Both the position numbers and the translations under genes were made by a program. A model generated the notes under the pieces. The model was given only the letters and a program-made list of their open reading frames with translations. It had not been told where the DNA came from and made no database searches. Shown piece after piece: positions 42,569 through 63,933 of a stretch of DNA of 64,000 bases; position 1 is the stretch's first letter; every line of letters starts with the position of its first letter. The DNA comes from Bacteroidota bacterium (GTDB lineage: Bacteria; Bacteroidota; Bacteroidia; B-17B0; Aurantibacillaceae): positions 1 through 64,000 of the forward strand of contig JACPOC010000026.1 of the NCBI GenBank assembly GCA_016185125.1, written 5' to 3'.

Positions 42569-42585
42569 TTGGCACAGTTTTTTAT
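42569..42585 (+). promoter_or_regulatory. TGGCA-type motif upstream of REC-TM protein
   Basis: TTGGCACAGTTTTTTAT, 30 bp upstream of ATG 42616. Confidence 0.5.
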
Positions 42586-42615
42586 GTTTTATTAATAACC
42601 TTAAAAACAGAAAAA

Positions 42616-43107
42616 ATGACCCCGAATGTAATAAATTTATTTGTTGTTGATGACGACGAATCTTTACTGACACTTGTTAAAACCCACATGAGCAGAAAAT
42701 TCGGAACTGATATAAACATTACTACTTTTAGTTCCGGTGAATCTTGCCTTGAACACATAAATTACGAAACGCATATTGTAATACTTGATTACGATTTAAA
42801 AGGTGAGAACGGACTTGATATTTTAAAACTCATTAAAACCATTAATCCGCATACCGAAGTGATAATGCTTTCTAATAATGAAGATATGACGGCAGCTATT
42901 GAAGCATTTAAAAGAGGAGCCAAAGATTACATGATCAAGGATACCGGTTCGTTAAAAAAAATAACTGAACAAATTAATAAAAAGGCAGATAAATTTAAAA
43001 AGGCAGTTAATGAACCCAATATGCAGAAAATAGCGGCGTTGTTTTTTTTAAGTTTTGCTACTTTGGCAATTGTTATAACCGTGTATTTAAAGTATTACAG
43101 AAACTGA
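42616..43107 (+). CDS. Receiver-domain protein with C-terminal transmembrane anchor
   Basis: 163 aa; VVDDDESLL, IVILDYDLKGENG, K in DYMIKD; C-terminal IAALFFLSFATLAIVITVYLKYYRN. Confidence 0.9.
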   Translation: MTPNVINLFVVDDDESLLTLVKTHMSRKFGTDINITTFSSGESCLEHINYETHIVILDYDLKGENGLDILKLIKTINPHTEVIMLSNNEDMTAAIEAFKRGAKDYMIKDTGSLKKITEQINKKADKFKKAVNEPNMQKIAALFFLSFATLAIVITVYLKYYRN

Positions 43108-43211
43108 TTTTTTTTAATTAAAATGCACTATCAGAATAATATATTTTTCTACCCCTTTAACTAAGTGATAGGCTAAAAACACTTCACGCTACATTGAAAA
43201 CATTTTCTGTA

Positions 43212-44666
43212 TTACATCGAGCTCCTTTGTTGTTTTTTACGCATCTCACTGTTAGGAATACCAGAAAGTTCGCGGTATTTAACTACTGTTCGTCTGGCAA
43301 TATTAATTTCTTTTTCCTTTAACAACATCATTATATCAGAATCTGATAGTGGCTTCTGTTTATCTTCCTCTCTTACAATTTGCTGTATTAATTCCTGCAC
43401 TTGTAAAGAAGTGGAAGAATTAGCATAAGTTGTATCGTTTTTTTCAGAAGATATGGCGCGCATAAATAAATTCTTTAAACTGAAAATTCCAAAAGGAGTT
43501 TGAACATGTTTATTACTGGTAATCCTGGAAACAGTACTCAGGTCGTACCCTGTTTTAGTAGCAATGTCCTGTAAAATCATTGGGCGTAATTCTCTTGGAT
43601 CTCCGCTTTTAAAAAAATCGGGCTGCATTTGCGCAATGGCGGTCATCACTTTCATCATTGTAGTTTCGCGTTCCTTTAAAGCGTTAATTAAAGAATTTGC
43701 ATCGTTTACTAAATTTTGAAAATAACTTTCGGCTTGTTTTTTTTCTGAAGTATTTGAAATATTTAAATTACCGGTTGAAGTGTAATCAGGATTAACTCTT
43801 AGCTTAATAAATTCCGAAGAAGTAAGTGATACAAAGTAATCGTTATCTTCAACCGAAACCTCAAAATCAGGAATGATCTGTTCCTTTAATAATTCATAAC
43901 GGTTGGTTTCTGTAACCGGTTTAGGATTTAATTTACTAATGTAAATAATACATTTTTCAAGTTCCTCCCCGCTCATTTGCAGCTCAGATTTTATTTTAGG
44001 AAATTGCCGTTGAACAAATTCGTTATAAAAATCTCTTATAATTTGCAGCGCAAGAAAATGCGTTCTGCACTCTTTGTTACCTCGTCTTTTAAGCTGTAAA
44101 AAAAGGCATTCGTGTAAACTACGCGCGCCTACTCCGGCAGGCTCGCAATTTTGAATAATCGTTAAAGCGCTTGCCACCTTTTCCTCATCCATCATTTTTC
44201 CTTCACGGAAACTGTAATCATCTGCAACTTCAGTTACAGGCCTTCTTAAATATCCGTCGTCATCCAGTTCATCCACCAGATAACAGGCAATCTCAGTAAT
44301 ATCTTCTTCCAGGTTCATCATGTGTACCTGATCTTTTAAATTTTCCTGCAAAGAATTATATTGAATTACCGGTGCCTCGTAATGATTTTCGTTTGTTTGC
44401 TTTTGTGTTTTTTCGTAAGGCTCTTCATCCTGATCCCACAATAATTCATTATCAAATTCGTCTTCTTTTCCACTATCCTCTTCAGCGTTTACATCCGGCT
44501 CTACTTCCGATTCAAGTACAGGGTTAAGTTCAATTTCATTAGCAATATATTCTTGCAATGCATAGCCCGACAAATGCATAATGTGCATCAGCTTTAAATG
44601 CTGTTGCGACATGTAATATCCCTGCTTTTGCTGCTGATTCTGTTTTTGACTTTGAAAATGGTTCAT
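43212..44666 (-). CDS. rpoN: RNA polymerase sigma-54 factor
   Basis: 484 aa; N-terminal Q-rich region I, CEPAGVGARSLHECL, C-terminal RpoN box ARRTVVKYRE. Confidence 0.97.
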   Translation of the reverse strand: MNHFQSQKQNQQQKQGYYMSQQHLKLMHIMHLSGYALQEYIANEIELNPVLESEVEPDVNAEEDSGKEDEFDNELLWDQDEEPYEKTQKQTNENHYEAPVIQYNSLQENLKDQVHMMNLEEDITEIACYLVDELDDDGYLRRPVTEVADDYSFREGKMMDEEKVASALTIIQNCEPAGVGARSLHECLFLQLKRRGNKECRTHFLALQIIRDFYNEFVQRQFPKIKSELQMSGEELEKCIIYISKLNPKPVTETNRYELLKEQIIPDFEVSVEDNDYFVSLTSSEFIKLRVNPDYTSTGNLNISNTSEKKQAESYFQNLVNDANSLINALKERETTMMKVMTAIAQMQPDFFKSGDPRELRPMILQDIATKTGYDLSTVSRITSNKHVQTPFGIFSLKNLFMRAISSEKNDTTYANSSTSLQVQELIQQIVREEDKQKPLSDSDIMMLLKEKEINIARRTVVKYRELSGIPNSEMRKKQQRSSM

Positions 44667-44731
44667 GAGGGAAATTTTAAATTAAATATACACTATTTTA
44701 TGAATTAGTGACCAACTATTTTTTTTAATTA

Positions 44732-45109
44732 TTATTCTGCAACTTTTTTACCTGTTATTTTTGAAGCAATGTCGCCAAGCCAGTTAACAATAGAAACTTT
44801 ATTTTTTTCAATAAGATTAGAAGTTACATTTTTTATTAAAAACGGAACTATGATCCGTGGTAATAACCCTGAATTTTTTAAAGCTGTTTTAGCAATAAAA
44901 TTGGTTACCTGTCCAACAGAATTACTAAGCATATCGTTATTATCACTCACCAAAGCCTTTTTTGCACCGGAAGTTAATAGCTGTAAAGGCCCCAGCATTT
45001 GCTTAATTTCCTGAAAATCATTTTTAATTTCCCGTTCAAGATTCATTCTGCGGTACAGTAACCGTTTCCGTTCAGCTTTCAGGTCTTCCAGTGTATCAAT
45101 CCTCTTCAT
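44732..45109 (-). CDS. Hypothetical protein, third gene of the YtxH/holin-like cluster
   Basis: 125 aa; overlaps upstream gene end by 14 bp. Confidence 0.75.
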   Translation of the reverse strand: MKRIDTLEDLKAERKRLLYRRMNLEREIKNDFQEIKQMLGPLQLLTSGAKKALVSDNNDMLSNSVGQVTNFIAKTALKNSGLLPRIIVPFLIKNVTSNLIEKNKVSIVNWLGDIASKITGKKVAE

Positions 45110-45461
45110 GAAAATTAATTTTTTTAAGCAGGGCGTTAATAATGGGCAACTTAATAAGAGATTTTCGTGTAATAATTACAAGAATAGCGATTACAAAATA
45201 AAACCCGGCAACATATAAAAAACCTATGAAAGAACTTTGAAAATAATCAGATAAATACAAAGCAGCACCGATGCTTAACAGCAATAGCACAAATGACATC
45301 AACAAGCCAACCACGGCCACAGAGTCAATGGAAGCTAATATTTCAGACATTTTATCCTGAATGTTAATTGCGGCAAGATCTATTCTAGTTTCGGCACATT
45401 CAATAACATGCCCAAACAAGCGATCCAGCTTACTTTCATCTGCTTTATTTTCTTCTTCCAT
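45096..45461 (-). CDS. Phage-holin-like / YqjE-type two-TM protein
   Basis: 121 aa; SVAVVGLLMSFVLLLLSIGAALYLSDYFQSSFIGFLYVAGFYFVIAILVII. Confidence 0.8.
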   Translation of the reverse strand: MEEENKADESKLDRLFGHVIECAETRIDLAAINIQDKMSEILASIDSVAVVGLLMSFVLLLLSIGAALYLSDYFQSSFIGFLYVAGFYFVIAILVIITRKSLIKLPIINALLKKINFHEED

Positions 45462-45493
45462 AGGTTTTTAATCTAATCACTTTATCAAGCAGA

Positions 45494-45805
45494 TTAGTTA
45501 TTTAAATTTGACCCATTGGTGTGAGCATTCGCTACATTTTTTGCCTTACCCTTGTAGTTTTCAACTTCGTCTTGAACCATTGATTTTAATCCGTCAGCTT
45601 TTTCCATTGCCTTGTCTTTTAAGTTGCTGAGTGTTTCTTTTCCTTCGTTGATCTTTTCTGCCAACTCATCAATAATGTCTTCAGCATTATCTTTAATTTG
45701 TTGCCTGAGTTCACTTCCTTTGCTTGGAGCAAATAATAAACCTAATACTGCGCCCGCTGCAGCACCTAGTACCAGAGCGCTTAAAATTTTGGTGTTGTCT
45801 TTCAT
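45494..45805 (-). CDS. YtxH-family protein
   Basis: 103 aa; ALVLGAAAGAVLGLLFAPSKGSELRQQI. Confidence 0.9.
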   Translation of the reverse strand: MKDNTKILSALVLGAAAGAVLGLLFAPSKGSELRQQIKDNAEDIIDELAEKINEGKETLSNLKDKAMEKADGLKSMVQDEVENYKGKAKNVANAHTNGSNLNN

Positions 45806-46050
45806 AATAATGATGTTTATGGTTAATATTCTTATATACTATATGGAATAATCGTGCCGAAAATAAAAAACCCCGCATTTACCGCTAATTAGGCAAATGA
45901 GATAAATTTAAAAATAAAAACGGGTAATGCAATCGCCATACTGTGGAATATATTGCCAGGCAAATTCCCTTTCCTACCTTATATAGCCTTCCATTCATAG
46001 GCATTGCTTTTGAAATAGAAGAGTATCCGCCAGAAACGGAAAATATAGTT

Positions 46051-46869
46051 ATGCTTACAAAACAAGAAAACGCTGAAAAGGAATCTGAACTTGAAGAAAA
46101 GGTTGCGGATACTCCAGGTGCCACCCGCATTTTCTTTAGTGAAGCCGGTGCTATTGCAATTTTTACCGGACAAACGGTTAGAAGTATATTTTCATTTCCA
46201 TTTGAGTTCCGTGAATTTATAAAACAATGTTACATGATTGGCAATCGCTCCTTTGGCCTGGTAGGAGTTACCGGTGCAATAATGGGCATTGTGCTTACCA
46301 TTCAATCACGGCCGGTGTTAGCCGATTTTGGAGCCGAAGCCATGCTTCCTCAAATGGTTGCAGTTTCATTGGTTCGCGAAATTGGCCCCGTTATTACTGC
46401 GCTAATATGTGCAGGTAAAGTTGGTTCAGGAATGGGGGCCGAATTGGGTTCTATGAAAGTTACCGAACAAATTGAAGCCATGGAAGTTTCGGCAACCATG
46501 CCCATGAAATATTTAGTGGCCACACGGGTACTCGCTGCAACCTTTATGATTCCTTTGTTGGTTATTTTTGCCGATACACTTGGTTTATTAGGAAGCTGGC
46601 TTGGCGTAAATATTAAAGGGGATGTAAATATTGTATTATTTTTTTCTCACGCATTTGCATCTGTTGATTTTATGGATTTAATTCCTTCACTTGTAAAATC
46701 ATTTTTATTTGGCGCGGTAATTGGCATCATTGGTTGTTATAAAGGTTATACTGCCGGAAAAGGAACGGAAAGCGTAGGCATAGCCGCTAACTCTGCCGTG
46801 GTGCTTTCTTCACTATTAATAATTATTACAGATCTTATTGCTGTGCAGGTAACAGATATTTTATTATGA
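46051..46869 (+). CDS. mlaE: MlaE-family ABC transporter permease
   Basis: ORF 45943-46869; likely start ATG 46051; GVTGAIMGIVLTIQSR, REIGPVITALICAGKVGSGMGAELGSMKVTEQIEAMEV. Confidence 0.93.
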   Translation: MLTKQENAEKESELEEKVADTPGATRIFFSEAGAIAIFTGQTVRSIFSFPFEFREFIKQCYMIGNRSFGLVGVTGAIMGIVLTIQSRPVLADFGAEAMLPQMVAVSLVREIGPVITALICAGKVGSGMGAELGSMKVTEQIEAMEVSATMPMKYLVATRVLAATFMIPLLVIFADTLGLLGSWLGVNIKGDVNIVLFFSHAFASVDFMDLIPSLVKSFLFGAVIGIIGCYKGYTAGKGTESVGIAANSAVVLSSLLIIITDLIAVQVTDILL

Positions 46870-47654
46870 GTGAAACTGAATTGCATACCCAACAAAGTTC
46901 TACCCAGGCATTAACAGAACCGGAAAAAATTATTGAGGTAAAAAACCTTAGCATTTCATTTGGTGCGCAACACGTACTCAAAAACTTAAACTTTCATCTG
47001 AATAAGGGCGAAAATCTTGTCATTCTCGGCAAATCCGGATCAGGCAAATCTGTTACCATTAAATGCATTACCGATCTGCTAACACCCGATAGTGGCACGA
47101 TTGAAGTATTGGGAGAAAAAATTGAAGATTTGGAAAGAGAAGAACTTTCTGAATTACGAAAAAAAATCGGGTTTCTTTTCCAAAGCGGCGCACTCTATGA
47201 TTCGATGACCGTTAAGGACAATCTGGAGTTTCCGCTTCTTCGAATGAATAAAAAATTAAAGCGCGATGAAATTAACGAAAAAGTAAAAAAAGTTTTAGAC
47301 AGTGTGGGGCTGGCGCACGCCTTAAATAAAATGCCTGCCGAACTATCAGGGGGAATGAGAAAAAGAATCGCATTAGCAAGAACAATAATCGTTGATCCGG
47401 TAATTATGTTGTACGATGAACCGACAACCGGGTTAGACCCCGTAACCTCACGTGAAATAAGCGTATTGATAAATGAAGTGCAAAAAAACTATGAAACCTC
47501 TTCCATTATTATTACGCACGATATGGATTGCGCCCGCGAAATTGCAGACCGTGTTTTAATGCTGAAAGATGGTGAAGTATTAGCGGAAGGCACTTTGGAA
47601 GAGCTGGAAAAAAATGAAGACCAATGGATAAAATCTTTCTTTGGAAAAAATTAA
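46866..47654 (+). CDS. mlaF: MlaF-family ABC transporter ATPase
   Basis: 262 aa; GKSGSGKS, LSGGMRKRIALAR, MLYDEPTTGLDP. Confidence 0.95.
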   Translation: MSETELHTQQSSTQALTEPEKIIEVKNLSISFGAQHVLKNLNFHLNKGENLVILGKSGSGKSVTIKCITDLLTPDSGTIEVLGEKIEDLEREELSELRKKIGFLFQSGALYDSMTVKDNLEFPLLRMNKKLKRDEINEKVKKVLDSVGLAHALNKMPAELSGGMRKRIALARTIIVDPVIMLYDEPTTGLDPVTSREISVLINEVQKNYETSSIIITHDMDCAREIADRVLMLKDGEVLAEGTLEELEKNEDQWIKSFFGKN

Positions 47655-47661
47655 ATAAAAA

Positions 47662-48477
47662 ATGGGAAATTCAAAAAAATTAGCAGGACGTTTAGGAATA
47701 TTTGTAGTAGCAGGCTTAGCCTTGCTGGTAGCAGGGATATTTTATATAGGCCGTCAAAAACATTTATTTAACCCGGTGGTTAATTTAAATACCACTTTTA
47801 AAAACATCAGCGGCTTAGAAGTAGGAAACAATGTAAGGTTTTCAGGGATAAATGTTGGAACCGTGCAACAAATAAGAATAATAAATGATACCACTGTTAA
47901 AGTTTACATTATTGTAGATAAAGAAGTTCAAAAATTTATAAAAACAGATAGTCGCATCAAGATTAGCTCCGATGGCTTAATTGGAGATAAAACCATAAAT
48001 ATTACACAAGGAACTTCATTGGGAAGAAGTGTTAAAGAGGGTCAGTATTTAATTTCGGTAGAACCGCTTGAAACCGACGCCATTATGGCTAATTTGAGCA
48101 AAACCGGCGAAAACGCAACTATTATTTCCGGAGAACTTGCTGAAATAATTCATAAAGTTAATACAGGTAATGGAACTATTGGCCGTTTATTACGCGACAG
48201 TACTATTGCGGAAAATATTGGACAAACTATTAGAAACCTGAAGCGAAGTTCAAAGGGTTTGGATGAAAATATGGAAGCTGCAAAACATAATATTTTACTC
48301 AGAGGTTTTTTTAAGAAAAAGAAAAAAGACGAAGAGCATTTAAAAGAAGGAAAGAATAAAAATAAAGAAACAGCCAATGAACACGAAACCAAAGAGAAAA
48401 AAGAAACTTGGAAAGAAAGGCGCGAGCGCAAAAAACTAGAAAGAAAATTAAAACAAGAAGCCGAAGAAAAAAAATAA
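47662..48477 (+). CDS. mlaD: MlaD/MCE-domain protein with charged C-terminal tail
   Basis: 271 aa; TM then TTFKNISGLEVGNNVRFSGINVGTV; Lys/Glu-rich C-terminus. Confidence 0.92.
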   Translation: MGNSKKLAGRLGIFVVAGLALLVAGIFYIGRQKHLFNPVVNLNTTFKNISGLEVGNNVRFSGINVGTVQQIRIINDTTVKVYIIVDKEVQKFIKTDSRIKISSDGLIGDKTINITQGTSLGRSVKEGQYLISVEPLETDAIMANLSKTGENATIISGELAEIIHKVNTGNGTIGRLLRDSTIAENIGQTIRNLKRSSKGLDENMEAAKHNILLRGFFKKKKKDEEHLKEGKNKNKETANEHETKEKKETWKERRERKKLERKLKQEAEEKK

Positions 48478-48480
48478 ATT

Positions 48481-48714
48481 ATGGAACAAAATAAAAAAAA
48501 CATTAATAATAAAATTATTATCTCTGGGCCCGGGCCTGAGAAAAATGATCCAACTAAAAAGGATGATGATAATGATGCTACAGAACCAAAACCAGGCGTA
48601 ACAGATCCGGGGAAAACGGATCCAACCAGAAAAGATGACCCAAAGAAAAATGACCCTACCCGCATTGACCCGAATACCAATCCTATAAAAATAGATCCCA
48701 CCCGAAATAAATAA
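48481..48714 (+). CDS. Low-complexity Asp/Pro/Thr/Lys repeat protein
   Basis: 77 aa; NDPTKKDD...KTDPTRKDDPKKNDPTRIDPNTNPIKIDPTRNK, 3 bp after mlaD stop. Confidence 0.65.
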   Translation: MEQNKKNINNKIIISGPGPEKNDPTKKDDDNDATEPKPGVTDPGKTDPTRKDDPKKNDPTRIDPNTNPIKIDPTRNK

Positions 48715-49431: not shown

Positions 49432-49448
49432 CTGGCATAATGTTTAAA
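49432..49448 (+). promoter_or_regulatory. TGGCA-type motif upstream of candidate small RNA
   Basis: CTGGCATAATGTTTAAA. Confidence 0.45.
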
Positions 49449-49574: not shown

Positions 49575-49591
49575 TTGGCATAAATATTTGA
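49575..49591 (+). promoter_or_regulatory. TGGCA-type motif upstream of lipoprotein 49654
   Basis: TTGGCATAAATATTTGA. Confidence 0.45.
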
Positions 49592-49653: not shown

Positions 49654-50217
49654 ATGAAAAATCTACTTAAAATTACATTACTGTTTTTAGCGGCAAGCAT
49701 TATGTTTGTTTCCTGTAAAACAATGTCGGTTACAAAACGCCATTATAACAAAGGTTATTATGTAAGCCACTCCGCCAAGAAAAACAAGCTTGAGAGCAAC
49801 AACCCTGCCAAAGAGGCGGTGGTTAAAACCGTTGAGCAATTAGCCCCTAAAGCCATAGATGGGATAAAAGATCAGCCTTCCAATCCTGAATTACTGGCAA
49901 GCAACGTAACTAATAAAAAAGAAAGCACCACAGAAGCGCAAACCCGTAAAACAATTGAAAATAAAATTAAATACGCAGGCAAGAGCGATATTAAATTTAA
50001 GGATGTTTATAAAAATCCTTTCAAAATAACTAAAATGGTTGCAGCAAAAGACAGTAATAAGGATGGGTTAAGTCTTATTTGGATTTTAATAGTTGTGATT
50101 TTAATCATTTACCTTTTGGGCTTTTTATTCGACGGATTTGGGTTAGGAAATTTAATACACATATTGGCTATTATTGCTTTAGTACTTTTAATTTTGTGGT
50201 TGTTAAAAGTAATTTAA
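49654..50217 (+). CDS. Lipoprotein with C-terminal lmo0937-like double hydrophobic segment
   Basis: 187 aa; lipobox IMFVSC; TKRHYNKGYYVS; C-terminus LIWILIVVILIIYLLGFLFDGFGLGNLIHILAIIALVLLILWLLKVI. Confidence 0.8.
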   Translation: MKNLLKITLLFLAASIMFVSCKTMSVTKRHYNKGYYVSHSAKKNKLESNNPAKEAVVKTVEQLAPKAIDGIKDQPSNPELLASNVTNKKESTTEAQTRKTIENKIKYAGKSDIKFKDVYKNPFKITKMVAAKDSNKDGLSLIWILIVVILIIYLLGFLFDGFGLGNLIHILAIIALVLLILWLLKVI

Positions 50218-50324: not shown

Positions 50325-50341
50325 ATGGCATAAAATTTAAA
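50325..50341 (+). promoter_or_regulatory. TGGCA-type motif upstream of OmpA lipoprotein
   Basis: ATGGCATAAAATTTAAA, ends 23 bp before ATG 50365. Confidence 0.5.
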
Positions 50342-50364: not shown

Positions 50365-51198
50365 ATGAATACAGGAAATCACAGTTTCGACCAGCAAAAA
50401 AACAAAACATTAAGCACTATTGTTAATTTGTTTTACCTTCTGTTTACCCTTGCCATCCTATTTTTTGCCAACAGCTGTGTATCCAAAAAAAAATACAAAC
50501 AGCTTAACGAGCATTACACCAACCTTAATGCTACTAATGATAAATTGGTAGAGCAATATAATCTTCTGGCCAAAAACAAAGATGAATTGGAACAAAGCAA
50601 TAAAAGCGAACTTCAAAAGTTAAATACAGAGTTACAAGCTAAATTAAACGCTTTAGAATCCAGCAATAAAATGGTTTCTGAGCTTCAAGCTGCCATGCAA
50701 AAACAAAAACAAGCGCAAAAAGAACTATTAAATAAAATAACAAATGCCTTGGCCGGATTTAACTCTAATGAACTAACTGCTGAATTACGAAAAGATGGGA
50801 AGGTTTATGTTTCGCTTTCAGAGAAATTATTATTTAAATCGGGCAAGTACGACATTGATCCTAAGGGAAAAGAAGCCTTAGGAAAGTTGGCCGGTGTTTT
50901 AGTTCAGCAACCGGATATTGACATTATTGTAGAGGGTCACACGGATACAATTCCATTAAAAAAAGGTGGGGAACTAAAGGATAATATAGATTTAAGCGTT
51001 TTAAGAGCTACTTCCATTGTGCGCATTCTTTCTGTGGATTATAGCGTAAATCCTAAACAACTATACGCTTCGGGCCGTGGCGAAAGCTTTCCTCTTGCCA
51101 CAAATTCAACACCCGAAGGCCGTCAATCCAACAGAAGAACAGAAATTATTCTTTCGCCACGCATTCAGGAGCTTCGTAAATTGCTGGAAGAAAATTAA
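50365..51198 (+). CDS. OmpA-family coiled-coil lipoprotein
   Basis: 277 aa; lipobox FANSC, C-terminal DIIVEGHTDTIPL...GRGESFPLATNSTPEGRQSNRRTEI. Confidence 0.92.
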   Translation: MNTGNHSFDQQKNKTLSTIVNLFYLLFTLAILFFANSCVSKKKYKQLNEHYTNLNATNDKLVEQYNLLAKNKDELEQSNKSELQKLNTELQAKLNALESSNKMVSELQAAMQKQKQAQKELLNKITNALAGFNSNELTAELRKDGKVYVSLSEKLLFKSGKYDIDPKGKEALGKLAGVLVQQPDIDIIVEGHTDTIPLKKGGELKDNIDLSVLRATSIVRILSVDYSVNPKQLYASGRGESFPLATNSTPEGRQSNRRTEIILSPRIQELRKLLEEN

Positions 51199-51544: not shown

Positions 51545-51759
51545 AAAATAATATTTTAGCAATTCCTGCCGCACAACGTAACATATTATTTAGTTTTTAT
51601 GATTAATATACTTTTAATCATTTAAATATTATGCCAAGTAAATTAATACCAAAATGTAGCAAATATTCCCACCCGGCCTAAAATGAATAAAGAATAATTT
51701 CAAAAAAAAGCGTGAATGATAAAATTGATTTCGTGTGTTCTCTAAATCAAAAATAAAAA

Positions 51760-52336: not shown

Positions 52337-52353
52337 TAAAAAACTTATGCCAT
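52337..52353 (-). promoter_or_regulatory. TGGCA-type motif, leftward
   Basis: ATGGCATAAGTTTTTTA on - strand, 23 bp from ATG 52313. Confidence 0.5.
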
Positions 52354-52379: not shown

Positions 52380-52396
52380 TTGGCATAATATTATAT
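52380..52396 (+). promoter_or_regulatory. TGGCA-type motif, rightward
   Basis: TTGGCATAATATTATAT, 23 bp from ATG 52420. Confidence 0.5.
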
Positions 52397-52419: not shown

Positions 52420-53715
52420 ATGAATTCTGAAAAAATAAAAAAACACCCCGGTTCCTCAAAAAAGAAAAGTTTACGCATTGGATTGGTAATTATAATTTTT
52501 TTAATAATTGCACGCTTAATATTACCTTATATCATCCTTCATTACGCCAACAAAAGCTTAAGTAACATGAATGGCTATTATGGTAAAATTAAGGATATTG
52601 ACCTGGCACTTTACCGTGGAGCTTATAAAATTAAGGACCTTTACCTGCACAAAAAAGATTCGGTTACCAATTTTGAAACTGAATTTTTTGATTCGCAGGA
52701 AATAGATTTGGCAATAGATTGGGCGGCCTTATTTGATGGGAAAATTGTGGGCGAAATTACCGTAGAAGAACCAATTCTTCGATTTATTAAAGATAAAACC
52801 GAGCCAAAACAAATTCAAAAAGACTCTAGTGATTTTAAAAAGGTACTTGATGATTTTATGCCCCTACAAATAAACCGTTTTGAAATTAATTACGGCATAA
52901 TAAAATATGTGGATAAAAATTCCACCCCTAAAGTAGATATTGAAATGAATAACACCCATGTTACAGCTGAAAATTTAACCAATGCAAAAAGCCTTACTTC
53001 TTTGCCGTCAACTGTTACAGCCTCTGCGGATATTTATGAAGGCACACTTACTTTGGATATGAAGCTGGATCCGCTTGCACAAAATCCCACTTTTGATTTG
53101 AATTCAGAACTTAAAAACACCAATCTTGTTAAGCTTAATGAATTTTTTAAAGCCTATGGTAAAATTGATGTGAGCCGAGGTTCGTTCGGGCTTTACACCG
53201 AAGTGGCCGGCAAGGAAGGTAAATTTGTGGGCTATGTTAAACCTATTATTAAAGATTTAAAAGTTTTGGGTCCCGAAGATAAAAACGATGGTTTGCTTCG
53301 TAAGTTTTGGGAAGGTATTGTAGGAGGTGTGGGCGTTTTATTCCGAAATCAAAAAGAAGATCAGATAGCAACCAAAATACCTATTGAGGGATCGTTTGGA
53401 AAAACAAAAGTGTATACCTGGCGTGCCATTATGGAAATTTTAAGAAATGCTTTTATTGAAGCCCTCACGCCGTCTTTAGATAATGAAATTAACTTATCCT
53501 CGGTAGGTAACACTACTGAAAAAGGAATTTTTAAAGGAAATAAAAATAATAGAAAAGAGAAAAGTAAAGAAGAAAAAACAGTAACTAAGGAAGATAAAAA
53601 AGAAGAAAATCCTAAAGAAGAGAAAAAAGAAAAGAAAGGTTTATTTAAGAAATTATTTAATAAGAAAAATAAAGATAAAAAGGCTAAAGAAGCCCCGGCG
53701 GAAGAACCTAAATAA
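52420..53715 (+). CDS. DUF748-like (AsmA/TamB-related) envelope protein
   Basis: 431 aa; N-terminal TM, DIDLALYRGAYKIKDLYLHKKD, EITVEEPILRFI; Lys/Glu-rich C-terminal tail. Confidence 0.85.
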   Translation: MNSEKIKKHPGSSKKKSLRIGLVIIIFLIIARLILPYIILHYANKSLSNMNGYYGKIKDIDLALYRGAYKIKDLYLHKKDSVTNFETEFFDSQEIDLAIDWAALFDGKIVGEITVEEPILRFIKDKTEPKQIQKDSSDFKKVLDDFMPLQINRFEINYGIIKYVDKNSTPKVDIEMNNTHVTAENLTNAKSLTSLPSTVTASADIYEGTLTLDMKLDPLAQNPTFDLNSELKNTNLVKLNEFFKAYGKIDVSRGSFGLYTEVAGKEGKFVGYVKPIIKDLKVLGPEDKNDGLLRKFWEGIVGGVGVLFRNQKEDQIATKIPIEGSFGKTKVYTWRAIMEILRNAFIEALTPSLDNEINLSSVGNTTEKGIFKGNKNNRKEKSKEEKTVTKEDKKEENPKEEKKEKKGLFKKLFNKKNKDKKAKEAPAEEPK

Positions 53716-53792: not shown

Positions 53793-54143
53793 TTAATGCG
53801 CCTTCTTTGCGCAATCTTCAACCTCTTTTATAAACGCCGATACATTTGCATCGTTGTAAATCCCATAAGCATCACTTAAGGTACCTTTTTCCCCACTTGC
53901 TGTTTCAATGGCATATAATATTGAATTGTCTGCAGGATCGGAGTCTCCTTCAAAACGATAAAAACTTACTATCTTAACTTCATCGGGACGATATATTTTA
54001 TCGGTAGCTAAGGATTTTAATCCGTCTTTTGTTACCTTAAATTGGGCTTCATAACCTTGTCTGGTTAAATGATTCACGCATGAACTAAGGGTTTTCATGT
54101 CTACTTTTTGAGATAAGTCATTGTTTTCTGTTTTATTTTCCAT
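53793..54143 (-). CDS. Hypothetical cytosolic protein
   Basis: 116 aa, coding-like, no recognised motif. Confidence 0.7.
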   Translation of the reverse strand: MENKTENNDLSQKVDMKTLSSCVNHLTRQGYEAQFKVTKDGLKSLATDKIYRPDEVKIVSFYRFEGDSDPADNSILYAIETASGEKGTLSDAYGIYNDANVSAFIKEVEDCAKKAH

Positions 54144-54215
54144 AGGGTGTTGTATTTTGTTTCTATTTCTTTTATATCAATTTGCTTGCCACTATAATGA
54201 GTATTTAATTACCCA

Positions 54216-55880
54216 CTATTTATCGTCAGATTTATTAATAAATTTTTCTGAATGTTTAACGCCTAATGCCGGAAGTATTCCTGTTTGCAACGATTTCCAA
54301 GTGTAATAGAATAAGAATTTATAAGGATAACGCTCGTAAGCAATATCCGTTATTAAAGGTGCTTTACCTTTTTGCGGGTTCGAATCGTTAATGATAAATT
54401 TATCTGCAAGAAAACTAAGAATCTTTTTTTTCAGAGTTTGTTTTTTATCATCACGGTTAATTAACTGCACTTTTAAATCGTGATACAAAAACTTCATCCA
54501 GCCTTTTGATCGTTGATCATTGGCATTAAAGGAAAATGCCATCGTATCGAGCCGGCCACTTTCTATAGAAGCAAACACGGTGTTTTCAAGCATCATGTTA
54601 AGTTCTTTCATATCCATATTAACTAATTTTCCGGAACAATGAAAAACTTCTTTTACCGTATTAAGAGGAAACTCATACAGTACCGTTAATTTACCTTTAT
54701 TCATAAATTTGGCTCTTGCTCTCAGCTTTAATTTGGCTTTGTTATCTGTATAAGAATTCGAGTCGTTTCGTAATCCGGTAATGGTACCGTTTAAATTATT
54801 AAAATATATTTTGCCCGCTTGCTTAGTGCCTTTTGCTAAGTGTTCATAAATAATATCGGCATTATTAACCTTAACAGTATCAATAATAATTAAAAAGGGA
54901 ATTTTACGGATAACTTCCTGAACCGAAATACTTTTTACAGGTTTAAAATCCGGATTTTTATCTCTGTAAACATTTAAGTTCAGGGCATTGATGTCTAATT
55001 TTTTTGCCAGAAACCAGTTATGCTCCAAAAAAAGCTGAACATTCATTTTACTAAATACAACACCGGCCGAGTTTAATTTAACCCTGCTCACCTGCTTTCC
55101 GGCAACATCGCTAAATTTATCTTTATTAAAATTAGGCACCAGCTCAAGCGAATCAACACTCACCAACGAATCGGCATAAGAAGCGGTAAGATTTTTTCCT
55201 TTAATAGTGTACAATTTATCAGGAAGCACGTATGAAAATGTTTTCATATTAAAATTGAATTTATCGGCAACAAACAAGCGTTCAAGACTATCAATACGGC
55301 TGTTCACTAAAAACTTACTGATATAAATATCATTTTCATCCGAAAATAAAACCTCTGTTGAATCGTTTTTAAAAAGCTTCAATTTGGTATTGCTTATCCT
55401 AATATTTTCTATAGCTAATTCATTTACTTTTTTTGAAATGATTTTATATAAAGAAAGCCTAACGTTAGAGGTATCGGTTTTTACGGGCCGTGTTTTAGAT
55501 TGATAAATATTAATTGCAATATCGGTAAAAGATAAGGAGGTGGCGGAAATGGATTTACGCTTAATAAAATTCATAAGGCCTATTCCATCTAAAGAAATAT
55601 TTTTGGCAATAATTTTATAGCGAGCCACTTTGCAACCATTGCAGGGTTTTGGAACAAATTCAATATCGTCAAAATCAATCGACCTGTTAAAAATACTTAC
55701 ATTAGTAGCGCCTATCTTAAGATTATATTGATGCTTAGTAGCAATATCAACCTGCTCTTGAAGATGCCCTGCCAACTTATTTTTAAGATAATAATTGATA
55801 TATAATTGAGCCGAAAATAATATGACAAACAGCACCACGAACAAAATAATAAGAATCCGGGCAATTTTTTTTAATACCAT
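54216..55880 (-). CDS. AsmA-like / DUF748-like envelope protein
   Basis: ORF 54216-56042; likely start at 55880 (MVLKKIARILIILFVVLFVILFSAQLYINYYLKNKL) since the N-terminal extension overlaps the divergent BrkB-like ORF. Confidence 0.8.
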   Translation of the reverse strand: MVLKKIARILIILFVVLFVILFSAQLYINYYLKNKLAGHLQEQVDIATKHQYNLKIGATNVSIFNRSIDFDDIEFVPKPCNGCKVARYKIIAKNISLDGIGLMNFIKRKSISATSLSFTDIAINIYQSKTRPVKTDTSNVRLSLYKIISKKVNELAIENIRISNTKLKLFKNDSTEVLFSDENDIYISKFLVNSRIDSLERLFVADKFNFNMKTFSYVLPDKLYTIKGKNLTASYADSLVSVDSLELVPNFNKDKFSDVAGKQVSRVKLNSAGVVFSKMNVQLFLEHNWFLAKKLDINALNLNVYRDKNPDFKPVKSISVQEVIRKIPFLIIIDTVKVNNADIIYEHLAKGTKQAGKIYFNNLNGTITGLRNDSNSYTDNKAKLKLRARAKFMNKGKLTVLYEFPLNTVKEVFHCSGKLVNMDMKELNMMLENTVFASIESGRLDTMAFSFNANDQRSKGWMKFLYHDLKVQLINRDDKKQTLKKKILSFLADKFIINDSNPQKGKAPLITDIAYERYPYKFLFYYTWKSLQTGILPALGVKHSEKFINKSDDK

Positions 55881-55901
55881 AAATTGAATATAGTTAAAAT
55901 T

Positions 55902-56255
55902 ATGCCAGAACCCACCCAACAAAAACTTAAACAATTTTTCAAAAAAATATGGCATCTTTTCCGCGATACAATTGTGGGCTCCGCGGTAACGGCGGTGCTG
56001 TTTATGCTTGGCAAATTCGCTATAGGATATTATCTTTCGCACTCCCGCTTGGCTACTACTTATGGCGCAGCAGGCTCCATTATTTTAATTTTAGTATGGG
56101 TATATTATTCAGCTATTATCTTATATTTTGGTGCTGAATTTACCAAAGTGTACATTAAAACGCATAAGCGCAAAATTATCCCTAATCATTATGCAGTATT
56201 AATTGATAAGCATGTGGTGGAAATAGAACCTAAAGTGGTAACTTTCCAGGATTAG
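55902..56255 (+). CDS. Orphan C-terminal segment of a YihY/BrkB-family membrane protein
   Basis: ORF 55884-56255; FRDTIVGSAVTAVLFMLGKFAIGYYLSHSRLATTYGAAGSIILILVWVYYSAIILYFGAEFTKVY matches the BrkB C-terminal helices; N-terminal two thirds absent. Confidence 0.75.
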   Translation: MPEPTQQKLKQFFKKIWHLFRDTIVGSAVTAVLFMLGKFAIGYYLSHSRLATTYGAAGSIILILVWVYYSAIILYFGAEFTKVYIKTHKRKIIPNHYAVLIDKHVVEIEPKVVTFQD

Positions 56256-56374: not shown

Positions 56375-56391
56375 GTGGCAGGATAATTTAA
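56375..56391 (+). promoter_or_regulatory. TGGCA-type motif upstream of lmo0937-type gene
   Basis: GTGGCAGGATAATTTAA, 28 bp before ATG 56420. Confidence 0.45.
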
Positions 56392-59600: not shown

Positions 59601-61628
59601 ACCCCTGATAAAACCTATGGCGGAGAAATAGAGGCAACTATTAAAAACTTTAAACTTGACGACATTTCGCGCATTATTGAAAAAGACACCGGTATTGTAA
59701 AAGGCACATTAAACGGAAACATTACCCTTAAGCCAATCAATAATTCCTATGGCTTTAACACCGACTTAATCGTTAATGATTTAAGTGTACATGAAATTCC
59801 TATCGGCACTTTAGTTTTAAAGGCCAACAACATTACGGCCAATAAAATTGCGGTTGATATGAAGTTAAACGGAGCCGGAAACAACGTATCTGTCAGCGGA
59901 TATTATATTCCCAACGAAAAAAATCCCACTCTTGAAATGAAACTAAATCTAGAGCCCTTAACCGCACAATCTCTGGAAGCCCTGTCGTTTGGACAGATCA
60001 GAGAAAGTTCCGGAAATATCTCAGGTAAATTTGATATTAAAGGCAATCCCGCGGTGCCGGAAATTACAGGCACGCTGCAGTTTGAAGAGGTTACACTCAC
60101 GCCTGCTTATTTAAACTCCAAACTTTATCTTAAATCAGAAAAAATTAAACTAGATCCTTCGGGATTGTATTTCAACTCCTTTACTTTATTGGATAAAAAC
60201 AATAATTCAGCGGTGGTTAACGGTAACCTCCAAATGAAGAAATATAGCGATTTTAAATTCGACTTAACAGTAAATACTTCCAATTTCCTTTTGTTAAATA
60301 CTTCAGTGAAGGATAACCAACAATTTTATGGGCGCATGATTGTAGATAGTAAAATTCGAATCAAAGGAAGTCCGCAATCCCCTGTAATAACTTCAGCTCT
60401 CAAATTAAAAAACGGATCACATTTTACATTTGCGGTTACCGAAAAAAAACTTACAACAGATAAAGGAAATAATGTGGTACTTTTTGTAGATTCATTAAAA
60501 TTTAATCCCATTCTCACAAGAAACGAAAAGAAAGAAAAAAACAAAAGTACTTTGCGTGATTTTGATATTTCGTCCACAATTGAAATTGATAAAAAAGCAA
60601 CCATACGTTTAATGCTTGATCCGGATTCAAATGATTCCTTAGTGGTAAGGGGAGAAGCGGCTTTGAGCTTCGGCCTTGATCCAAGTGGTAAAACAAGCTT
60701 AACAGGTGTTTACAATATAACAGAGGGAAGTTACGGAGTATCGCTTGAAAATATAATCAAGAAAAAATTCATCATTCAACCGGGCAGCACCATTGTTTGG
60801 AACGGAGATCCGCTCGACGCGCTAATTAATATAAACGCGGTATATAAAATTCGTACTTCGCCTATTGATTTGGTAGCGGGGCAGGTACTTGGATCCGAGC
60901 TTGCAAGTTATCGGCAACGTTATCCATTTGATGTGTTGCTTAAATTACGCGGTGCCATTCTAACGCCACTTATTAGTTTTGAAATACAATTACAGGCAGG
61001 GGAAAAAGGTGCGGCCGGCGGATCTATTAATGCAAAACTTGAACAATTAAATGATAATCCATCCGCGCTTAATAAGCAGGTATTTGCCTTGCTGGTCTTA
61101 AATCGCTTTATCCAAGAAAATCCTCTACAAACAGAAACCAATGCCACCGCAAATACCGCACGAACAACCGTTGGAAAATTTCTATCTTCGCAACTTAACC
61201 TATTAAGCTCAAAAGTGGCACCGGGAGTAGATATTAATTTTAACATTCAGTCATATGATGATTATTCATCTGGTAAAGCCCAAGGAAGAACACAAGTTGG
61301 CATGGGATTAAGCAAGCAGTTATTTAATGAAAGAATAAATGTACAGGTGGGAGGTTCGGTAGACGTGGAGGGTGAAAAAGCAAAGAAAAATTCCGCATCA
61401 GATATAACCGGTGATGTGATTGTAGAATATAAAATTACACCCGACGGCCGTTATAGGTTAAAAGGCTTCAGAAACAATCAGTACCAAGGCGCATTGGAAG
61501 GCCAAATTATACAAACAGGAGCCGGCGTTTTGTACGTACGTGACTTTAATGAATGGATTCAATTATTTACAAAAGAAAAAAAAGATTCTCTTTCAGATAA
61601 ATATAAGAATGCGCTGGATTTTAAATAA
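56637..61628 (+). CDS. tamB: TamB-family translocation/assembly module protein
   Basis: ORF 56622-61628; ATG 56637; N-terminal TM, very long beta-rich protein, C-terminal DUF490-like (QPGSTIVWNGDPLDALININAVYKIRTSP...VLLKLRGAILTPLISFEIQL). Confidence 0.93.
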   Translation: MKYNLSTFFKRLIKIFMWIVACVILLLATLVLLIRIPAVQNTLVQKVTAYLTERTKAEIAIKKILISFPNSVSIEGLLVKDLNRDTLLSAGNIQVGIDMFQLIHKKILINKVLLSDITATISRTENDSLYNFNFLIEAFAASPKNTTPKDSTKQQINLDVNKIELNNIHFIFNDRYAGIYTSNSFKRLNLSMKEINLNTLNFKADELELSGLNSKVIINKKISSSPSKGEKNRQPIFSANSVKITNSIFSFSDYIIKQSVTTVINNLQVKASEIDLNTKKINSQGVSIAQSSVRVNMTQIAKDNSPGILDKTAKVSDLGWIIKSKEIQLDNIDFGYNITNVPAKETGFDAKHINYQKVSLNAYDLGYSNEKIYATVNSFSALDPHSFQIKEFTTKFTMTKTFIEAQHLKVKTGYSSIDADAKISFTSLETIADSIKNLIVHTHIKKSKIYPFEILYFAPQLVNTPTFKNNFPISLSAQINGPLSNVSVRNLKLTTAASTALESDFKIAGLPNINKSYFNILHLKLKSTKADIIKLAGRNTIPKSISLPEELSLKGKFSGYLKDFTTQININSSFGNAEVNGSLDKKENFKASVSSHHFNLNSLLNNKMFGPVTLHAKIEGSGLDTQSIKAQVIADIEQVYLNKYNYKNLKLNGSYAKKSVDAKISLNDSNAVFDLAAFVNLNSGQEEYNVNLDLKGADLKKLNLMEQDIKLSCNVKTTIKGKNMNTVNGNAGITNIIIASKGKKYFLDSLVFASINQSGNSEMKLSSSIIGFSYKGTFAPTDLVKELKHNIHSYFAIDNDIQKTHNFKSAQQFSFTVQINNHPILSEVFLPELKEFEPGEINGSYNSDKNQMNLNFYMNKLVYGTTEINALVFEASSDEKKLNYKLITKKIATSKIKFDNLLLEGRFEDQHAYANISSTEENGNKKLVINSETVRDGQNYKLSILPNEFYLMNEKWEVSQDNFISFGKSGLLINNISLTKTSEEVKINTPDKTYGGEIEATIKNFKLDDISRIIEKDTGIVKGTLNGNITLKPINNSYGFNTDLIVNDLSVHEIPIGTLVLKANNITANKIAVDMKLNGAGNNVSVSGYYIPNEKNPTLEMKLNLEPLTAQSLEALSFGQIRESSGNISGKFDIKGNPAVPEITGTLQFEEVTLTPAYLNSKLYLKSEKIKLDPSGLYFNSFTLLDKNNNSAVVNGNLQMKKYSDFKFDLTVNTSNFLLLNTSVKDNQQFYGRMIVDSKIRIKGSPQSPVITSALKLKNGSHFTFAVTEKKLTTDKGNNVVLFVDSLKFNPILTRNEKKEKNKSTLRDFDISSTIEIDKKATIRLMLDPDSNDSLVVRGEAALSFGLDPSGKTSLTGVYNITEGSYGVSLENIIKKKFIIQPGSTIVWNGDPLDALININAVYKIRTSPIDLVAGQVLGSELASYRQRYPFDVLLKLRGAILTPLISFEIQLQAGEKGAAGGSINAKLEQLNDNPSALNKQVFALLVLNRFIQENPLQTETNATANTARTTVGKFLSSQLNLLSSKVAPGVDINFNIQSYDDYSSGKAQGRTQVGMGLSKQLFNERINVQVGGSVDVEGEKAKKNSASDITGDVIVEYKITPDGRYRLKGFRNNQYQGALEGQIIQTGAGVLYVRDFNEWIQLFTKEKKDSLSDKYKNALDFK

Positions 61629-63912
61629 CTATTTATTTTTAACCTTCATTGTTTTGGCCGGATGCACGGGCTTAAAGCGGCTGCCTCCTAATGAAAAACT
61701 ATACACCGGGGTTAAAATTCAACTTGTTTATTCAGGTAAAATAAAAAATAAAAAAGAAATCACTTCTAAAATAAAAAGTGCCATCCGTCCGGAAACCAAT
61801 CAAAGTTTTTTAGGAATGCGGCCAAAGTTATGGCTGTACCAAACAGCAGGTGAACCAAAAAAAGATAAAGGTTTACGAAAAAAATTAAGAGAACAAGGAG
61901 AACCACCTGTTTTAAAAAGTTCAGTTAAACCCGCGCAAACCGCTAAATACATCGACGCCAAACTATTTAATTCAGGAATATTTAATGCTACAACAGAATA
62001 TAAAATTATAGAATATAAACGCACGGTTAAAATTAAGTATATAAGTCGCATTCATATTCCGTATAAAATAAAAAGCGTTACTACGGATATTAGCCAACCT
62101 GCCATAGACTCACTGATAAAAGCCGCCTCTAAAAAAACGCTTTTAATACCCGGTAATAATTATGATCTTGATGTGCTTAAACAGGAAAGAGAGCGGCTGG
62201 ACGCCACATTAAAAGACAACGGATTCTACTACTTTAATCCTGATTATTTTCTTTTTAAGGCCGACACTCAAACAGTTAACAAATTGGTAAGTTTTACACT
62301 TACCCTTAAAGAAGAAATACCACAAAAAGCATTGGAGATTTATAAAATTGGAAAAGTTTTTATTAATCCCGATTATTCCTTACAACACAACCTCCACAGC
62401 GATAGTTTAAACTCTAAGCCACTATTGGTAGACAGTGTTATTTTTACAAGTGATCAAACTCATATAAAACCTTGGGCAATATTGCAAAACGTTAGTTTAC
62501 GCCCACACAACCAATATTCAAGAAAAAAGCATAACAGCACGTTAAATCGTTTAATGACCATGGGTACTTACAAATTTGTAAGAATAAAATTTACTGATGA
62601 TGATACTGTAAAAACTAAAACACTTAATATGCGTTTGTTTTTAACGCCAATGCAAAAACGCACTTTGAGAAATGAAATTAACATGGTTTCAAAATCAAAT
62701 GACTTTTTAGGACCCCAGTTGAATATAAATTATCAAAATCGTAACACCTTTCAGGGAGCTGAACTTTTAAATGTAAATGTGGGGGGATCTTTTGAAACTC
62801 AGGTAAGCGGCAAGTATAAAAATTTATATTCCTATAGTTTAAACTCAAAAGTGGAACTTATTTTTCCCAGATATATTGTTCCCTTTAAACTGATTAACCC
62901 TAATAATTTTTTTGTACCTAAAACAAAATTCTCAGTAGGATATAATTACCTCAAACGCATCGCTTACTTCGATCTTCGCTCCTTTCAATTCACCTATGGT
63001 TTTAAATGGAAAGAATCTACTTGTAAAGAACATGAATTAAATCCCGTAAGTGTCAATATAATAACCGTAGTAAATAAAACTCCCGAATTTAACAGCTTGC
63101 TCGAATCCAATCCTTTTATAAAAAAAAGTTACAACGAGCAATTTATTGCAGGCCTTCAATATTCTTTTTTATATAACGAACAATTACTTTCCGGTAAAAA
63201 AAACCAATTGTACTTCAATCTAAATACCGAAACATCGGGCAACCTAATTTCATTGGTGAACCAACTATCCGGGCGCCCACCCAATGAAGCAAATCCTTTA
63301 AGAATTGCAAATATGGTTTATTCACAATTTGGAAAAATAAGTGCAGACCTTAGGAACTATTTGAATTTTAAACATAGTAAAATAGTTACCCGATTATTTG
63401 GTGGGGTGGGAAAAGCCTATGGCAATTCTTCCACATTGCCCTACATAAAACAATTTTTTAGCGGGGGCGCTAATAGCATAAGGGCATTTCCAATTAATTC
63501 GCTTGGCCCCGGAACTTATTCATCAGAACCCCAAAGCGCCACATTATTTCTGCAACAAGGCGGTGATATTAAATTGGAAGGAAATTTTGAATACCGTTTT
63601 GATATTTTCAAATCTTTAAAGGGTGCCTTGTTTACCGATGCGGGAAATATTTGGCTGTTTAAATCAAATCCGGCGGTGATGAGCGCGCCATTTGCCCTTA
63701 ATGAATTTTACAATGAAATTGCTGTAGGCGCAGGTTTTGGGTTACGTTTAGACGTTACTTTTTTTGTATTGCGATTTGATTTGGCCACACCGCTACGCAA
63801 ACCTTCATTACCCAAAGGTCAGCGATGGTTAATCGAACGTCCCGCACCCGCCGATCCTTCATGGAGAAGCGATAATCTTATCCTGAATATAGCCATCGGA
63901 TACCCCTTTTAA
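61609..63912 (+). CDS. tamL: TamL-like lipidated BamA/TamA (Omp85) family protein
   Basis: ORF 61540-63912; likely start ATG 61609 (MRWILNNYLFLTFIVLAGC lipobox); C-terminal GGANSIRAFPINSLGPG, barrel. Confidence 0.9.
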   Translation: MRWILNNYLFLTFIVLAGCTGLKRLPPNEKLYTGVKIQLVYSGKIKNKKEITSKIKSAIRPETNQSFLGMRPKLWLYQTAGEPKKDKGLRKKLREQGEPPVLKSSVKPAQTAKYIDAKLFNSGIFNATTEYKIIEYKRTVKIKYISRIHIPYKIKSVTTDISQPAIDSLIKAASKKTLLIPGNNYDLDVLKQERERLDATLKDNGFYYFNPDYFLFKADTQTVNKLVSFTLTLKEEIPQKALEIYKIGKVFINPDYSLQHNLHSDSLNSKPLLVDSVIFTSDQTHIKPWAILQNVSLRPHNQYSRKKHNSTLNRLMTMGTYKFVRIKFTDDDTVKTKTLNMRLFLTPMQKRTLRNEINMVSKSNDFLGPQLNINYQNRNTFQGAELLNVNVGGSFETQVSGKYKNLYSYSLNSKVELIFPRYIVPFKLINPNNFFVPKTKFSVGYNYLKRIAYFDLRSFQFTYGFKWKESTCKEHELNPVSVNIITVVNKTPEFNSLLESNPFIKKSYNEQFIAGLQYSFLYNEQLLSGKKNQLYFNLNTETSGNLISLVNQLSGRPPNEANPLRIANMVYSQFGKISADLRNYLNFKHSKIVTRLFGGVGKAYGNSSTLPYIKQFFSGGANSIRAFPINSLGPGTYSSEPQSATLFLQQGGDIKLEGNFEYRFDIFKSLKGALFTDAGNIWLFKSNPAVMSAPFALNEFYNEIAVGAGFGLRLDVTFFVLRFDLATPLRKPSLPKGQRWLIERPAPADPSWRSDNLILNIAIGYPF

Positions 63913-63916
63913 TGAC

Positions 63917-63933
63917 TTGGCATAATTTTTTTC
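63917..63933 (+). promoter_or_regulatory. TGGCA-type motif upstream of the last partial CDS
   Basis: TTGGCATAATTTTTTTC, 35 bp before ATG 63969. Confidence 0.4.

What the first reader, a model, noticed from the sequence alone, without database searches (positions are those of the whole stretch)
42569..63933. Recurrent TGGCA(Y)-N7-TTTA-like motif in intergenic DNA: possible sigma-54-type envelope regulon with a divergent -12 element
Hand alignment finds TTGGCACAAAGTTTTAA (12917), CTGGCACAAACTTTTAA (36542, -), TTGGCACAGTTTTTTAT (42569), CTGGCATAATGTTTAAA (49432), TTGGCATAAATATTTGA (49575), ATGGCATAAAATTTAAA (50325), TTGGCATAATATTTAAA (51637, -), ATGGCATAAGTTTTTTA (52353, -), TTGGCATAATATTATAT (52380), CTGGCATAATTTTAACT (55908, -), GTGGCAGGATAATTTAA (56375), TTGGCATAATTTTTTTC (63917). 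Weaker: GTGGCAAGCAAATTGAT (54192, -), TCGGCACGATTATTCCA (45860, -). Most lie 12-62 bp before a start codon on the right strand; three end exactly 23 bp before ATG. The TGGCAC/T block matches the sigma-54 -24 element; the -12 GC is mostly replaced by T/A. rpoN lies in the same cluster, and downstream genes are envelope/stress types (REC-TM, OmpA, YtxH, lmo0937, AsmA-like).
Basis: partly seen in the sequence, partly recalled or inferred. Interest (0 to 1): 0.68.

Follow-up and report, generated by a model that had tools for sequence, protein, structure and literature searches.

The report
Second sigma-54 with its own promoters
In a group of uncultured Bacteroidota, the repeated DNA motif is very probably a class of gene switches read by a second, diverged copy of the sigma-54 factor encoded in the same cluster together with a dedicated activator, so a stress and envelope gene set appears to have its own private version of a classic bacterial control system.

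Summary
The motif is real. All 14 strings are at the stated coordinates, and a weight matrix from the 12 main sites finds 26 of 128 upstream regions in related contigs (8 antisense; 1.0 on average for shuffled matrices). It has the sigma-54 layout: TGGCA at -24, TT at fixed spacing, and no second conserved block. The usual GC at -13/-12 is replaced by TA/AA.

The rpoN in the window is a second sigma-54 gene (RpoN2); the ordinary RpoN1 is on another contig, 36% identical. RpoN2 keeps the -24-reading RpoN box but differs in the -12-reading helix-turn-helix and region I. Across 65 genomes, RpoN2 co-occurs with one activator (REC-AAA+-Fis): 15/16 RpoN2+ and 3/49 RpoN2- genomes, same contig in nine. 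Orthologous DUF2383 genes carry the motif in 11/15 RpoN2+ genomes and 0/8 others. A second RpoN2 lineage (B) has mostly TC/TA there. RpoN2's own operon has the most conserved site.

Best reading: RpoN2 plus its activator drives a stress/envelope regulon from promoters with an altered -12 element. This is comparative inference; nothing was tested experimentally. Novelty: a new variant of a known kind.

The parts
43212..44666 (-). rpoN2 (484 aa): second sigma-54; activator-interacting, core-binding and DNA-binding domains all present
   Evidence: Pfam PF00309, PF04963, PF04552; second of two PF04552 genes in the genome; 36% identical to RpoN1
44732..45109 (-). small protein in the putative ytxH-holin-like-rpoN2 operon
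   Evidence: ORF, no Pfam match
45096..45461 (-). holin-X-like membrane protein in the same putative operon
   Evidence: PF07332
45494..45805 (-). ytxH-like stress protein, first gene of the putative rpoN2 operon
   Evidence: PF12732
45844..45860 (-). Promoter of the putative rpoN2 operon, TCGGCACGATTATTCCA; conserved in other genomes and in front of the distant-type rpoN2
   Evidence: only genome-wide match to GGCAYNATTATTYC in this genome
42616..43107 (+). receiver-domain protein divergent from rpoN2; motif in front of its orthologues in the relatives' loci
   Evidence: PF00072
42569..42585 (+). RpoN2-type promoter TTGGCACAGTTTTTTAT
12917..12933 (+). RpoN2-type promoter TTGGCACAAAGTTTTAA, 110 nt before a gene with a DksA/TraR-type zinc finger
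36526..36542 (-). RpoN2-type promoter before a REC-LytTR regulator (35780-36481); conserved in G010 and G020
49432..49448 (+). motif match CTGGCATAATGTTTAAA, no ORF start within 200 nt
49575..49591 (+). RpoN2-type promoter before lipoprotein-like 49654-50217; conserved in G020 and G026
50325..50341 (+). RpoN2-type promoter before OmpA-family gene 50365-51198
51621..51637 (-). RpoN2-type promoter before a short lmo0937-like ORF
   Evidence: gene identity from reading the sequence
52337..52353 (-). RpoN2-type promoter ATGGCATAAGTTTTTTA, 23 nt before ATG; motif also before the G020 orthologue
52380..52396 (+). motif match TTGGCATAATATTATAT, 23 nt before ATG of DUF748 gene 52420-53715
55892..55908 (-). 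RpoN2-type promoter before the large ORF 54216-56042, if translation starts at the internal ATG
56375..56391 (+). weaker RpoN2-type match GTGGCAGGATAATTTAA before a short lmo0937-like ORF and the TamB/Omp85 genes
54176..54192 (-). weak match GTGGCAAGCAAATTGAT before 53793-54143
   Evidence: the G020 orthologue has TGGCAGAATTATTGAA
63917..63933 (+). motif match TTGGCATAATTTTTTTC before a lipoprotein gene running beyond the window

Best explanation
The motif is the promoter class of a second sigma-54 factor, RpoN2, encoded in the same cluster. RpoN2 keeps the RpoN box that reads TGGCA at -24. Its helix-turn-helix and region I, which meet the -12 region, have changed, and its promoters have TA/AA (window-type lineage A) or mostly TC/TA (lineage B) in place of GC at -13/-12. 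RNA polymerase with RpoN2 waits as a closed complex until a dedicated activator (a REC-AAA+-Fis response regulator at C18:82104-83555, beyond the window) is switched on by two-component signalling and opens the promoters. The output is a set of stress, storage and envelope genes. RpoN2's own operon carries a deeply conserved promoter of related form, which suggests feedback. Shown by computation: two RpoNs, the motif and its position, the -12 difference between lineages, co-occurrence and linkage of RpoN2 with the activator, and absence of the motif from one orthologous gene family where RpoN2 is absent. Inferred: that RpoN2 rather than RpoN1 reads these sites, that this activator drives them, and the stress signal.
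For: Two PF04552 genes in the genome; 36% identity. RpoN box kept in all; HTH and region I lineage-specific. Held-out PWM test. -13/-12 in TGGCA...TT upstream sites: lineage A TA 22, AA 5, GC 1 of 45; lineage B TC 20, TA 12, GC 9 of 51; elsewhere in G000 TA 2, GC 2 of 13; TA/AA share A vs B, Fisher p=0.0008, without correction for relatedness. Activator orthologue (>=52% identity over the full length; G014 only a fragment) in 15/16 RpoN2+ vs 3/49 RpoN2- genomes, p=6e-11; on the same contig as rpoN2 in 9 genomes, 2-44 kb apart. Activator has GSFTGA. DUF2383 orthologues: motif in 11/15 RpoN2+ vs 0/8 RpoN2-. cphA2 promoter at nearly the same distance with TTTTC in B and TTTTAA in A. No other conserved block downstream. 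rpoN2 promoter element conserved upstream of rpoN2 in 12 genomes.
Against: No transcript start or mutant data. RpoN2+ genomes are related, so the Fisher values overstate independence. Three genomes have the activator but no RpoN2 found (G019, G037, G039), and G001 has RpoN2 without it. G031, with no RpoN2, has a similar site before cphA2. Raw genome-wide pattern counts do not separate RpoN2+ from RpoN2- genomes. Lineage B still has some GC sites, so RpoN1 might serve some promoters. No regulon-wide activator binding site was found.
Confidence: 0.77

Rival explanations
1. The sites are ordinary sigma-54 promoters read by RpoN1, which in this AT-rich lineage tolerates TA/TC at -12; RpoN2 is redundant or does something else.
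For: RpoN1 is always present; the -24 box is the same; lineage B neighbourhoods retain some GC sites; G031 has a site at cphA2 without RpoN2.
Against: Orthologous DUF2383 genes in RpoN2- genomes lack the motif (0/8); sites cluster around rpoN2 and are weak elsewhere in the genome; the -12 letters follow the RpoN2 lineage; G000 has separate canonical TTGC promoters, one next to another activator gene.
Confidence: 0.13
2. The motif is the site of a different factor (an ECF or sigma-A-type promoter, or an operator) that only resembles -24/-12.
For: The conserved ATTATT spacer in the rpoN2-operon site is unusual for sigma-54.
Against: TGGCA to TT spacing of sigma-54 type, strand bias, typical distance of 38-63 nt from TGGCA to starts, no further conserved -10/-7 block, not a palindrome, linkage to rpoN2 and a sigma-54 activator.
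Confidence: 0.07
3. The alignment is a chance product of AT-rich intergenic DNA.
For: The loose pattern is not enriched over the whole window.
Against: Held-out PWM test, antisense control and conservation at orthologous genes.
Confidence: 0.02

Closest known systems
Canonical sigma-54 (RpoN) -24/-12 promoters with AAA+ enhancer-binding proteins
   Same: TGGCA at -24, TT and the same spacing, RpoN with all three domains, REC-AAA+-Fis activator with a GAFTGA-type loop.
   Different: GC at -13/-12 is replaced by TA/AA or TC; the inferred reader is a second paralogue with altered HTH and region I.
Rhodobacter sphaeroides RpoN1/RpoN2 and Bradyrhizobium japonicum paired sigma-54 factors
   Same: Paralogous sigma-54 factors with promoter sets that differ near -12 (PMC3162934 cites differences at -11 and at -12); in R. 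sphaeroides RpoN2 serves a distinct function (PMC12316311).
   Different: Those are Proteobacteria with flagellar or nitrogen-fixation regulons; here Bacteroidota, a stress/envelope gene set, and loss of the -13 G.
Flavobacterium psychrophilum sigma-54 regulon (PMC9723704)
   Same: Bacteroidota; sigma-54 regulon includes protein quality control and envelope stress functions.
   Different: A single sigma-54 with typical -24/-12 elements.

Membership tests
Sigma-54 (RpoN) factor: is RpoN2 a member | AID, core-binding and DNA-binding domains | tested here: met
   Pfam PF00309, PF04963, PF04552 over cut-off
Sigma-54 (RpoN) factor: is RpoN2 a member | RpoN box reading -24 | tested here: met
   ARRTVVKYRE in the window; ARRT[VI]xKYRE in all compared sequences
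Sigma-54 (RpoN) factor: is RpoN2 a member | Activator-dependent transcription | not testable with these tools
   Needs in vitro transcription
Canonical sigma-54 promoter | TGGC(A) at -24 | tested here: met
   (the rpoN2 operon has CGGCA)
Canonical sigma-54 promoter | GC at -13/-12 | tested here: not met
   TA/AA in 27 of 45, GC in 1 of 45 lineage A sites
Canonical sigma-54 promoter | Fixed -24 to -12 spacing | tested here: met
   45 of 62 upstream sense TGGCA have TT at the exact spacing, although chance gives many in AT-rich DNA (16 of 25 antisense); column-shuffled PWM control
Canonical sigma-54 promoter | Transcription start about 12 nt downstream of -12 | tested here: inconclusive
   Weakly conserved A at about the expected start, but 5' leaders here are A-rich
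Sigma-54 activator (C18:82104) | AAA+ Sigma54_activat domain with GAFTGA-type loop | tested here: met
   PF00158 E=2.6e-65; GSFTGA
Sigma-54 activator (C18:82104) | Enhancer sites upstream of the promoters | tested here: inconclusive
   Only a cphA2-specific conserved element in lineage B

The most novel reading that the evidence does not exclude
RpoN2 with its dedicated activator acts as a general stress sigma system in these Bacteroidota, running in parallel with RpoN1 and insulated from it by a changed -12 letter code. Lineages A and B would be two versions of the same system whose promoter letters and reader helix have co-evolved (TA/AA vs TC/TA).
Probability: 0.45. Interest if true: 0.76.

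Novelty: new variant of a known kind. Interest (0 to 1): 0.64.

Why it matters
Sigma-54 promoters are treated as nearly invariant at GG (-24) and GC (-12), and standard matrices built on that are used to predict them. Here is a natural paralogue whose promoters drop the -13 G, in two protein lineages with different letters, with orthologous genes in relatives lacking the paralogue as controls. That makes -12 recognition by sigma-54 testable by residue and base swaps. It also offers a candidate global stress regulator for a phylum for which my literature search found little on stress-specific sigma factors, and it shows why standard sigma-54 searches would miss such regulons.

Tried and rejected
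Whole-window loose pattern: not enriched. Genome-wide pattern counts as a marker of RpoN2 status: did not separate genomes, too unspecific. Enhancer search upstream of sites: k-mers such as ATTCTAC and GGGGAA looked enriched in lineage B, but the clear conserved element is confined to orthologous cphA2 promoters (GGGGAANNAATTCYAC about 87 nt upstream of -24); no regulon-wide site. A TTCTACA-N-TGTAGAA palindrome before lineage A cphA2 is not shared with other sites. A+B RpoN2 as one clade: neither shown nor rejected (AU p=0.175). A -35/-10 type reading was rejected for lack of a second conserved block. The class-wide search found the close type in another family (f20/g29) as well, but those loci were too short to test promoters; MAG loci were used instead.

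Full report
Observation. All 14 listed strings are in the window at the stated places. A loose pattern over the whole window is not enriched (48 vs 44.7 expected), because most of the window is coding. Restricting to 150-bp sense upstream regions changes this. In relatives carrying the close type of RpoN2 it finds 26 of 128 upstream regions, against 8 on the antisense strand and a mean of 1.0 (max 6) for column-shuffled matrices. In the next 40 kb of the window's own contig it finds 7 of 30 (0.3 expected), in neighbourhoods of the distant type of RpoN2 46 of 237 (11 antisense, 2.7 expected), but in 15 stretches from other contigs of the same genome only 10 of 215 (7 antisense, 2.2 expected). 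The motif is therefore real and concentrated around rpoN2. Looking only at TGGCA, without assuming the rest, relatives' rpoN2 neighbourhoods have 83 sense vs 27 antisense sites, and the downstream consensus emerges on its own.

What rpoN is. The genome (3.34 Mb, 59 contigs) has two sigma-54 genes. RpoN1 is at C11:119983-121464; RpoN2 is at window 43212-44666. They share 36% identity. RpoN2 has all three sigma-54 domains. In the alignment of 41 sequences the RpoN box that binds -24 is kept in all. The HTH differs by group: RpoN1 mostly SRVANSKYVQTPYGTF, lineage A SRITSNKHVQTPFGIF, lineage B mostly SRIVISKYIQT(S/T)YGTL. Region I differs as well. In the published holoenzyme structures the RpoN domain contacts -24, while HTH and region I meet the -12 region (PMC5505868). 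So the protein part that changed is the one that faces the DNA part that changed. In lineage A relatives of another family the histidine is not strict (L254 has Y).

Two lineages of RpoN2. Of 65 genomes of the order, 16 have a second RpoN. Lineage A (G000, G010, G020, G026, G001) and lineage B (G003, G004, G008, G009, G011, G012, G014, G029, G036, G056) were classified by sequence; G050 has a second RpoN whose sequence I did not classify. No genome was seen with both. Each lineage is a well-supported group; whether they form one clade is open (AU p=0.175). Lineage A also occurs in another family of the class (67-71% identity) and in MAGs labelled only Bacteroidetes, Bacteroidota or Bacteroidia.

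The promoter letters follow the lineage. In upstream sense TGGCA sites with TT at the sigma-54 spacing, -13/-12 is TA 22, AA 5, GC 1 of 45 around lineage A; TC 20, TA 12, GC 9 of 51 around lineage B; and TA 2, GC 2 of 13 elsewhere in the window's genome. With a stricter site rule the share of TA/AA differs between A and B (Fisher p=0.0008), with the caveat that some MAGs are close relatives; family weighting keeps the trend. The cphA2 (cyanophycin-synthetase-like) promoter shows it at one orthologous gene: TGGCAY...TTTTC about 42-46 nt before ATG in six lineage B genomes, TGGTAY...TTTTAA or TTTTTAA at 39-40 nt in four lineage A genomes, nothing in RpoN2- G054 and G057, but a similar site in RpoN2- G031, and none in G050 and G056.

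Dependence on RpoN2. DUF2383 genes occur in 15 of 16 RpoN2+ and 8 of 49 RpoN2- genomes. The best copy carries the motif upstream in 11 of 15 RpoN2+ genomes and in 0 of 8 RpoN2- genomes, by one relaxed rule applied to both (p=0.0013). The genome also has ordinary TTGC sites: TGGCAYNNNNNTTGCW has 10 matches vs 0 for the reversed control, about half of them intergenic before genes, including one 50 nt before a receiver gene that adjoins another activator (C11) and one before the giant gene at C18:73042. Two promoter classes therefore coexist.

The activator. The genome has four strong PF00158 activators. The one at C18:82104-83555 is REC-AAA+-Fis with a GSFTGA loop. Its orthologue (at least 52% identity over the full length) is in 14 of 16 RpoN2+ genomes, and as a fragment in G014, making 15; it is in 3 of 49 RpoN2- genomes (G019, G037, G039) and absent from G001 (p=6e-11). 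In nine genomes (G000, G003, G004, G011, G012, G020, G036, G050, G056) it lies on the same contig as rpoN2, from about 2 kb (G050, G056) to about 44 kb away. In MAG L148, a lineage A carrier at 67% RpoN2 identity, it is 7 kb from rpoN2. This is the strongest evidence for a dedicated RpoN2-activator pair.

rpoN2's own promoter. Its core GGCAYGATTATTC is conserved across lineage A, and GGCAYNATTATTTC precedes lineage B rpoN2 directly. The pattern GGCAYNATTATTYC occurs just once in the window's whole genome, at that place, and upstream of rpoN2 in 12 of the 16 RpoN2+ genomes (in G010 the contig ends too close to test). The base before GGCA is usually C, and the spacer ATTATT is conserved, which is unusual for sigma-54. 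Feedback control is the simplest reading; an extra regulator at this site is possible.

Gene content. Downstream of sites in the window: REC-LytTR regulator, REC protein, OmpA, DUF748, a gene with a DksA/TraR-type zinc finger, YtxH and small membrane proteins. Elsewhere in the genome or in relatives: DUF2383, a stress-type SDR, OmpA-TPR lipoprotein, outer-membrane beta-barrel, Dps/ferritin, cyanophycin synthetase, iron permease-like, NUDIX. The label stress/envelope is an inference from families.

Limits. No expression data exist here; the RpoN2+ genomes are related; a regulon-wide enhancer was not found; gene starts come from a simple ORF caller. Precedent for paralogous sigma-54 factors with slightly different promoters exists in Proteobacteria (PMC3162934, PMC12316311), and a single-copy sigma-54 regulon including envelope stress functions is known in Flavobacterium (PMC9723704). 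The paper searches turned up no RpoN2 system of this kind in Bacteroidota, within an open-access library only.

Noticed in passing
C18:72899-72914 (L036): A canonical sigma-54 promoter (TGGCATACCTTTTGCA) lies before the giant 2287-aa ORF that precedes the RpoN2 activator gene, so RpoN1 may feed into the RpoN2 branch.
   Followed up: partly
L031:9089-10240: The activator at C17 has GSFTSA instead of GSFTGA and may not work with sigma-54.
   Followed up: no
L107, L109, L112, L115, upstream of cphA2: Conserved element GGGGAANNAATTCYAC about 87 nt upstream of the -24 element in lineage B genomes; a related palindrome TTCTACA-N-TGTAGAA in lineage A. Candidate enhancer for one gene only.
   Followed up: partly
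L238, L239 (G050, G056): In another genus with a second RpoN the DUF2383 sites read TGGTAC...TTGAA, i.e. GA at -13/-12, perhaps a further letter variant.
   Followed up: no
window 49432-49448: A good motif match over 200 nt from the next ORF start and 143 nt before another site; could drive a small RNA or a short ORF.
   Followed up: no
positions +27/+28 from TGGCA in lineage A and +27 in lineage B site alignments: A weakly conserved A sits about where a sigma-54 transcript would start, but leaders here are A-rich.
   Followed up: partly
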